Source of the DNA: Candidatus Aenigmatarchaeota archaeon
GTDB lineage: Archaea > Aenigmatarchaeota > Aenigmatarchaeia > GW2011-AR5
Reading direction: 5' to 3'
Length of the DNA: 34,919 bases
Assembly: GCA_016180925.1 (NCBI GenBank)
Contig: JACPAH010000015.1
Span: 1-34,919, forward strand
Under the pieces are notes generated by a model that did no database searches, had not been told where the DNA came from, and worked only from the letters and a program-made list of their open reading frames with translations. The position numbers and the translations under genes are program-made. Position 1 is the stretch's first letter. Every line of letters starts with the position of its first letter. Of this stretch, positions 20,598 to 34,455 are shown in pieces.

Positions 20598-20734
20598 TTC
20601 AGGAATGAAAAACACCTGACAAAAATAGCGATATGGTTAAAATATGGATATCGCATGTCCGGAACTAATGTTTCACAAAGAAAGTATATTTTAAATAGAG
20701 AAAAATCAATGATTCAATCGCCTTGGATGGAATT

Positions 20735-20826
20735 GCCTCAGCCAGAAATGGCGGCAAAGGTAGTGTAGCGGTCTAGCATATGGCCCTGTCACGGCCATGA
20801 CCCGGGTTCGAATCCCGGCCGAGGCG
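20735..20826 (+). tRNA. tRNA-Asp(GTC) with a 19-nt intron at position 5/6 (20740-20758)
   Basis: Exons GCCTC (20735-20739) + GG TA GTGT... (20759-20826) give a perfect GCCTCGG/CCGAGGC acceptor, TGGCC-CTGTCAC-GGCCA anticodon arm, CCGGG-TTCGAAT-CCCGG T arm; 73 nt mature. Confidence 0.93.
20740..20758 (+). other. tRNA intron, acceptor stem 5/6 (AGCCAGAAATGGCGGCAAA)
   Basis: Canonical BHB: central helix TGCC/GGCA, 5' bulge TC|A, inner helix GCC/GGC, 3' bulge AA|G. Confidence 0.9.
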
Positions 20827-20913
20827 CTTATGTAGGGCCTGTATTTTGAAAACCAGAGGTTTTCGAAATGTAGGCGCAATTTCGAAGAAATTGGGCCTGT
20901 AGCTCAGCCTGGT

Positions 20914-20958
20914 AAACTTCTTTCGGAAAGAAGTTTAATCAAGAAACGAGTTCAGGAT
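20914..20958 (+). other. tRNA-Lys D-loop intron (45 nt, position ~20/21)
   Basis: Central helix CCTG/CAGG, bulges GT|A and AT|A; removal gives the consensus D-loop AGCCTGGTA. Confidence 0.9.
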
Positions 20959-20975
20959 AGAGCACCTGCCTCTTA

Positions 20976-21018
20976 CCCCCGTAAAATGGCCTCGACTTTG
21001 CGCCAGCAAAGGGGAGAA
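20976..21018 (+). other. tRNA-Lys canonical 37/38 intron (43 nt)
   Basis: Central helix CTCT/GGAG, bulges TA|C and AA|A. Confidence 0.9.
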
Positions 21019-21056
21019 AGCAGGGAGTCGCGGGTTCGAATCCCGTCGGGCCCACT

Positions 21057-23583: not shown

Positions 23584-23701
23584 GGTTAGCAACGTGCCCG
23601 ATTTCCCAAGCCTTCGCTCAGTACTCTCATGGCCGCTGGATGGATTCTCTTCCGTGTTCGAAATGGGAACGGGACTACCCCATCCGCCATGGTCGCCAAC
23701 C
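23584..23701 (-). rRNA. 5S rRNA
   Basis: Minus strand GGTTGGCGACCATGGCGGATGGGGTAGTCCCGTTCCCATTTCGAACACGGAAG...AGCGGCCATGAGAGTACTGAG...GTTGCTAACC with closing terminal stem. Confidence 0.93.
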
Positions 23702-24135: not shown

Positions 24136-24253
24136 TCCCCCGACTGGGATTTGAACCCAGAACCTCACGGTTTCTGTTTAAAGCACCCGCTGGGTGCCTT
24201 CTTCTTTGAGAAGAAGACTACAGCCATGCGCTCTACCGTTGAGCTATCGGAGG
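24136..24253 (-). tRNA. tRNA-Tyr(GTA) with a 46-nt 37/38 intron (24172-24217)
   Basis: CCTCCGA TAGCTCAACGGTAGAGCG CATGG CTGTAG|A CCGTG AGGTT CTGGG TTCAAAT CCCAG TCGGGGG A; archaeal C1-G72. Confidence 0.93.
24172..24217 (-). other. tRNA-Tyr canonical intron (46 nt)
   Basis: Central helix CTGT/ACAG, bulges AG|T and AA|A; interior contains two tandem hairpins. Confidence 0.92.
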
Positions 24254-34293: not shown

Positions 34294-34326
34294 GAAGCCT
34301 CGAGCGAGAGTCGAACTCGCGACCTT

Positions 34327-34357
34327 TTAAGGAGAATTGTGGAAATCACGAATTCTT
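34327..34357 (-). other. tRNA-Thr intron 2 (31 nt, 42/43)
   Basis: AAGAATTCGTGATTTCCACAATTCTCCTTAA; central helix AAGG/CCTT, bulges TA|A and AA|A, inner helix AGAATT/AATTCT. Confidence 0.88.
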
Positions 34358-34371
34358 TACCTTACCAAGGT

Positions 34372-34388
34372 TTAGCGGCATTGCTGCT
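34372..34388 (-). other. tRNA-Thr intron 1 (17 nt, 28/29)
   Basis: AGCAGCAATGCCGCTAA; central helix AGCG/CGCT, bulges TT|A and AA|A, inner GCA-GCAA-TGC hairpin. Confidence 0.88.
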
Positions 34389-34455
34389 AACGCTCTACCA
34401 ACTGAGCTATCGAGGCGCAGTTAAAATGTTGTAGACAAATAATTAAATACGTCTG

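What the first reader, a model, noticed from the sequence alone, without database searches (positions are those of the whole stretch)
20740..20758. tRNA-Asp split by a 19-nt intron inside the acceptor stem (position 5/6)
The first exon is only 5 nt (GCCTC). The gene looks truncated until AGCCAGAAATGGCGGCAAA is removed, after which GCCTCGG pairs perfectly with CCGAGGC. A textbook BHB is present (TGCC/GGCA, TC|A, AA|G). The central helix uses the T at -1, outside the mature tRNA, so splicing probably precedes RNase P trimming. Introns at unusual tRNA positions are established in Thermoproteales and in ARMAN/Micrarchaeota with broad-specificity endonucleases, but one this close to the 5' end is very unusual.
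Basis: partly seen in the sequence, partly recalled or inferred. Interest (0 to 1): 0.88.

Follow-up and report, generated by a model that had tools for sequence, protein, structure and literature searches.

The report
tRNA-Asp intron inside the acceptor stem
In a tiny archaeon the gene for the aspartate tRNA is interrupted only five letters from its start by a 19-letter removable insert, and a spare copy of the tRNA's first seven letters just upstream may hold the molecule in shape until the insert is cut out.

Summary
Removing 20740-20758 joins GCCTC to GG and gives a complete tRNA-Asp(GUC) with a perfect 7-bp acceptor stem. The unspliced gene is invisible to ARAGORN. A bulge-helix-bulge at exactly that boundary occurs in 7 of 200,000 shuffles. 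A second genus of the same family (G006, a record labelled Candidatus Aenigmatarchaeota) has the same gene: GCCTC | 20-nt intron | GG. All pairing positions of the motif are kept, the intron loop differs, and the tRNA bodies differ at 8 positions including two compensatory pairs in the anticodon stem. That argues against a pseudogene or artefact. Of the 160 phylum genomes held, only these two match. Position 5/6 is rare but not the extreme: a 3/4 intron is reported in Thermoproteales. So it is a new variant of a known kind. In both genomes GCCTTGG lies exactly 15 nt upstream of exon 1 and pairs 7/7 (one G-U) with the acceptor 3' strand. Exon 1 cannot pair in the acceptor stem and in the splicing motif at once. 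Folding predicts that this leader strand frees exon 1 for splicing. That switch is inferred. No RNA data were available.

The parts
20690..20697 (+). TATA-like promoter element TTTAAATA
   Evidence: Best-scoring 8-mer upstream; 22 nt before GCCTTGG, 37 nt before GCCTC. Median gap to the mature 5' end in related tRNA genes 26.5, quartiles 21-34 (noisy).
20720..20726 (+). Leader strand GCCTTGG: substitute ('placeholder') 5' acceptor strand, pairs 7/7 (one U-G) with 20819-20825
   Evidence: MFE fold; conserved 7/7 at the same 15-nt spacing in G006; only 1 of 53 intact tRNA-Asp genes has a 7/7 match upstream
20727..20734 (+). Leader spacer ATGGAATT; its last base T (-1) pairs in the splicing motif
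   Evidence: AATAAACT in G006: same length, 4 of 8 bases differ, final T kept
20735..20739 (+). tRNA-Asp exon 1, positions 1-5, GCCTC
   Evidence: Restores GCCTCGG/CCGAGGC on splicing; intact GCCTCGG 5' ends in relatives
20740..20758 (+). 19-nt intron at position 5/6
   Evidence: Splicing motif with 5' bulge 20738-20740, inner helix 20741-20744/20749-20752, central helix 20734-20737/20753-20756, 3' bulge 20757-20759; shuffle test; homologous 20-nt intron in G006
20759..20826 (+). tRNA-Asp(GUC) exon 2, positions 6-73; anticodon GTC 20788-20790
   Evidence: Rfam RF00005; ARAGORN on the spliced sequence
20819..20825 (+). Acceptor 3' strand CCGAGGC, contested by the leader strand and the spliced 5' strand
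   Evidence: Pair probabilities

Best explanation
This is a functional tRNA-Asp(GUC) gene with an archaeal protein-spliced intron in the acceptor stem between positions 5 and 6. The splicing endonuclease cuts UC^A and AA^G, a ligase joins GCCUC to GGUAG, and RNase P then removes the leader. Confidence 0.8 refers to this core; it is inferred from anatomy and conservation, not from RNA data. Second, inferred step (about 0.4): exon 1 would have to pair both with the acceptor 3' strand and with intron GGCA, which exclude each other. The leader strand GCCUUGG takes the acceptor 3' strand in the precursor, keeping a tRNA-like closed stem and freeing exon 1 for the splicing motif. After splicing the Watson-Crick GCCUCGG displaces the weaker GCCUUGG (one G-U), which re-creates the RNase P site.
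For: Exact cloverleaf after splicing, none before. Motif rarer than 1 in 10,000 in shuffles. Same exon, intron and leader architecture in G006, another genus; intron loop diverged but every motif pair kept. tRNA bodies differ at 8 of 68 positions, including two compensatory pairs in the anticodon stem. Only tRNA-Asp found in the genome. Splicing endonuclease present, with a loop (QLKKGPKSAKEH) that aligns without gap to the broad-specificity N. equitans subunit 3iey_A and is absent from the narrow M. jannaschii enzyme 1a79. RNase P RNA present. For the switch: without the leader strand exon 1 pairs with the acceptor strand (P 0.95-0.98) and the motif is lost (0.01-0.04); with it the central helix has P 0.74-0.92 in G000. 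With tRNA arms enforced, after splicing the exon holds the stem in G000 (0.87 v 0.12), but a perfect GCCTCGG leader would win (0.79).
Against: No transcript evidence. Assembly 81% complete, so a second tRNA-Asp could be missing; the congener G001 (76% complete) yielded no tRNA-Asp at all. Only two sequences carry the architecture, with identical acceptor strands, so there is no covariation for the leader pairing. The outer helix of the motif is weak. Folding numbers are secondary-structure only: without enforcing the tRNA arms the leader strand still wins after splicing in G000 (0.86 v 0.12) and in G006 (0.69 v 0.30), and with arms enforced the contest in G006 is even (0.48 v 0.51). In G006 the central helix is only 0.14-0.27 even with the leader (0.00 without). 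Random leader sequences of the same composition also leave the central helix at 0.57-0.68 in G000. A 7/7 leader strand by chance occurs in 1.4% of shuffles, so the switch is suggestive only.
Confidence: 0.8

Rival explanations
1. The leader copy GCCTTGG is the real mature 5' strand, and the whole 34 nt between it and position 8 is removed (splice at GCCUU^GG..AAA^GG, or positions 6/7 or 7/8).
For: GCCTTGG sits 22-25 nt after the TATA element, the usual distance for mature 5' ends here (G006 by eye); GCCTTGG is the genuine 5' strand in some family members; ARAGORN accepts the product as tRNA-Asp with one G-U pair; in G006 the bases before it (TGCC) could also pair with intron GGCA.
Against: No inner helix forms next to such a 5' site, and in G000 the central helix would contain a C-A mismatch; it leaves the perfectly placed UC^A motif, its conserved GCCTC and the Watson-Crick match to CCGAGGC unexplained in both genomes.
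Confidence: 0.1
2. The 5/6 intron is real, but the leader GCCTTGG is only a relic of a short tandem duplication of the 5' end, without function.
For: Leader and exon 1 regions look like 15-nt tandem copies (AATYGCCTTGG / AATTGCCTCAG in G000; AATAATTGCCTTGG / AATAAACTGCCTCAG in G006); G030 shows a similar GCCTCGT GCCTCGG doubling without any intron there (L005).
Against: GCCTTGG is identical in two genera while 4 of 8 spacer bases have changed; it removes a real structural conflict in the folding model; only 1 of 53 intact tRNA-Asp genes has such a strand.
Confidence: 0.4
3. A dead or mis-assembled tRNA-Asp copy; the real gene lies in the missing 19% of the genome.
For: Assembly incomplete; no expression data.
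Against: Independent assembly of another genus has the same structure; compensatory anticodon-stem changes between the two; perfect cloverleaf and promoter; no other copy found.
Confidence: 0.05

Closest known systems
Non-canonical bulge-helix-bulge tRNA introns of Thermoproteales, including the 3/4 acceptor-stem intron (Sugahara et al. 2008, cited in PMC4090602)
   Same: Short protein-spliced intron at an unusual tRNA position, even in the acceptor stem near the 5' end; rich multi-intron tRNA set
   Different: Position 5/6; Aenigmatarchaeota lineage; exon 1 accompanied by a conserved leader copy of the 5' acceptor strand (whether the 3/4 cases have one was not checked)
ARMAN/Micrarchaeota pre-tRNAs and epsilon-2 endonuclease with ARMAN-specific loop (PMC4033280, PMC12397907)
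   Same: Relaxed motifs at varied positions served by an endonuclease with a lineage loop carrying lysines
   Different: Here a single ~193-aa subunit with a loop like the N. equitans alpha subunit, not a three-unit protein
Split and permuted tRNAs with leader or trailer pairing (PMC3218864)
   Same: Leader sequences take part in forming the splicing motif; tRNA-Asp also affected in Aeropyrum and Thermosphaera
   Different: One continuous transcript with exons in order; the leader pairs with the mature acceptor 3' strand instead of a partner half

Membership tests
Archaeal BHB (endonuclease-spliced) tRNA intron | Removal restores a canonical tRNA | tested here: met
   ARAGORN tRNA-Asp(gtc), 7/7 acceptor
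Archaeal BHB (endonuclease-spliced) tRNA intron | 4-bp central helix flanked by two 3-nt bulges, cut after the second nt | tested here: met
   TGCC/GGCA with UC|A and AA|G; 7 of 200,000 shuffles; conserved in G006
Strict hBHBh' motif (sub-type) | Helices on both outer sides | tested here: not met
   Inner helix 4 bp present; outer helix only two weak pairs (sequence; fold). Relaxed HBh'/BHL forms also belong to the family and are accepted by broad-specificity enzymes (PMC6379350)
Archaeal BHB (endonuclease-spliced) tRNA intron | Splicing endonuclease encoded in the genome | tested here: met
   PF01974 at G000:C12:15922-16200, E 1.3e-27; best solved relative 1a79. The position I take to be the catalytic lysine reads Ala-Arg or Ala-Lys in the six genomes compared
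Archaeal BHB (endonuclease-spliced) tRNA intron | Spliced junction seen in RNA | not testable with these tools
   No RNA data
Leader requiring RNase P | RNase P RNA in the genome | tested here: met
   RF00373 at G000:C9:20923-21267, E 3.4e-19, below the curated cut-off score
tRNA ligation | RtcB ligase in the genome | not tested

The most novel reading that the evidence does not exclude
A pre-tRNA conformational switch: a leader-encoded, slightly weakened copy of the 5' acceptor strand acts as an intramolecular placeholder that lets an acceptor-stem intron form its splicing motif, and is displaced by the spliced strand afterwards.
Probability: 0.4. Interest if true: 0.8.

Novelty: new variant of a known kind. 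Interest (0 to 1): 0.62.

Why it matters
An intron this deep in the acceptor stem sets up a direct conflict: the same five exon bases are needed by the tRNA stem and by the splicing motif, and the 5' end cannot be defined until splicing is done. The gene suggests how evolution can solve that, with a spare strand in the leader, and it fixes an order of processing (splice, then RNase P) that can be tested in vitro. It also shows why automatic tools can miss an essential tRNA in DPANN genomes.

Tried and rejected
Pattern CTGTCAN{14,44}GGTTCRAR missed even the query gene because the gap was too long by one; repeated correctly. The GTDB scan gave 28 loci, of which 27 are bacterial, about the number expected by chance (my estimate), and one is G006. 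Inexact searches for the intron junction in the rest of the order gave only chance matches outside G000 and G006. TATA spacing was examined as a test of which 5' end is real: GCCTTGG fits the quartile range, GCCTC (37) lies outside it but inside the full spread, so it is weak evidence; for G006 the automatic motif caller chose a different box and the 25-nt gap was counted by eye. Considered and rejected: group I intron (far too short), split or permuted tRNA (exons contiguous and in order), assembly artefact (seen in two assemblies).

Full report
Observation. Between 20735 and 20826 the window encodes GCCTC, a 19-nt insert (20740-20758) and a tRNA body beginning GG. With the insert in place ARAGORN finds nothing and Rfam aligns a mispaired 5' strand. 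With it removed, ARAGORN returns tRNA-Asp(gtc), 7/7 acceptor pairs and discriminator G. The insert boundaries coincide with a splicing motif: central helix UGCC/GGCA, bulges UC|A and AA|G, inner helix GCCA/UGGC closed by GAAA. In 200,000 dinucleotide shuffles, 7 gave any intron with a perfect acceptor and full motif.

Conservation. Of about 55 tRNA-Asp genes recovered from the 160 phylum genomes held, nearly all have an uninterrupted 5' end; introns elsewhere (D loop, anticodon loop, T loop) are common. One other genome, G006 (same family, different genus), has GCCTTGG-AATAAACT-GCCTC-AGCCTATAAACGGCGGCAAA-GG, followed by a tRNA-Asp body with, by reading the sequence, two further introns. An exact pattern search over all 160 genomes finds only these two. 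All motif pairs are kept while the hairpin loop differs in sequence and length. The two tRNA bodies differ at 8 of 68 sites; four of these form two compensatory changes in the anticodon stem (27:43 and 29:41 in standard numbering). This is the pattern of a working gene.

Lineage. G006:C78 has the length and sequence of JACQNX010000013.1, 'Candidatus Aenigmatarchaeota archaeon NC_groundwater_1266'. The window genome is in the same GTDB family, so it is inferred to be an aenigmatarchaeon. It has 843,696 bases and is 81% complete.

Machinery. One splicing endonuclease gene of about 193 aa is present. Its segment RGVQLKKGPKSAKEHTKW aligns without gap to the N. equitans alpha subunit (3iey_A), whose enzyme has broad specificity, whereas the narrow M. 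jannaschii enzyme (1a79) lacks six residues there (specificities from PMC6379350). A lysine-bearing loop next to the active site is what gives broad specificity in Crenarchaeota and ARMAN-2 (PMC6379350). That this loop does the same here is inference. RNase P RNA is present. RtcB was not tested.

The missed feature. Fifteen nt before exon 1, at 20720-20726, the leader reads GCCTTGG, which pairs 7/7 (one U-G) with acceptor strand CCGAGGC; the minimum-energy fold uses it. The same 7-mer lies at the same spacing in G006, where 4 of the 8 spacer bases have changed. Among 53 intact tRNA-Asp genes one has any 7/7 strand upstream; shuffles give 1.4%. A 7/7 strand and an acceptor intron together occurred in none of 200,000 shuffles.

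How it may work. Exon 1 is needed in two exclusive helices, the acceptor stem and the central helix of the motif. Without the leader strand, exon 1 sits in the acceptor stem (P 0.95-0.98) and the central helix falls to 0.01-0.04. With it, the leader holds the acceptor strand (0.99) and the central helix forms (0.74 with tRNA arms enforced, 0.92 free). After splicing, with arms enforced, GCCUCGG holds the stem in G000 (0.87 v 0.12) and is even in G006 (0.51 v 0.48). If the leader were GCCTCGG it would keep the stem (0.79 and 0.96). So the conserved U-G pair is in the direction a switch needs. Caveats: without enforcing the arms the leader wins after splicing in both genomes; random leader strands of the same composition still allow 0.57-0.68 central helix in G000; and in G006 the central helix reaches only 0.14-0.27 with the leader. 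The splicing step is the well-supported part; the switch is a testable inference at about 0.4.

Alternatives. The leader strand could itself be the mature 5' end, with 34 nt removed; the TATA spacing (22 nt, v 37 nt for GCCTC; median 26.5 in related genes) is compatible, but no proper motif marks that cut and the conserved GCCTC would be unexplained. Or the leader strand is a duplication relic: leader and exon regions look like 15-nt tandem copies, and G030 shows a GCCTCGT GCCTCGG doubling (L005). That rival is about as likely as the switch.

Known background. Introns at many non-canonical positions, including 3/4, are reported in Thermoproteales (PMC4090602), and acceptor-stem introns are mentioned in general in PMC12397907. 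No paper on Aenigmatarchaeota tRNA introns was found in the held library, nor one describing a leader placeholder strand, but the library is partial. Verdict: real, rare, a new variant of a known kind, with an unusual conserved leader element.

Noticed in passing
window 20893-21054 (+): tRNA-Lys with anticodon CTT carrying two introns, one in the D loop and one at the anticodon; missed by ARAGORN and by Rfam at the gathering score. Most tRNAs in this genome carry introns.
   Followed up: partly
L196:147-728 (G000:C12), L113, L114, L116, L120, L124: The Aenigmatarchaeota splicing endonuclease has Ala-Arg or Ala-Lys (IRAR/IRAK) where solved archaeal enzymes have the VRK motif, whose Lys I take, from memory, to be catalytic; conserved in all six genomes compared.
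   Followed up: no
L005 1480-1510 (G030): GCCTCGT directly before GCCTCGG at the 5' end of an otherwise normal tRNA-Asp: another tandem doubling of the 5' acceptor strand, without an acceptor intron.
   Followed up: no
L183 (G006:C78): tRNA-Asp with three introns (5/6, anticodon loop, variable loop), in a contig that also seems to hold a 5S rRNA upstream; gene neighbourhood differs from the window.
   Followed up: partly
window 23584-23700 (-): Stand-alone 5S rRNA gene, with two intron-containing tRNAs at 24136-24253 (-) and 34296-34416 (-).
   Followed up: no
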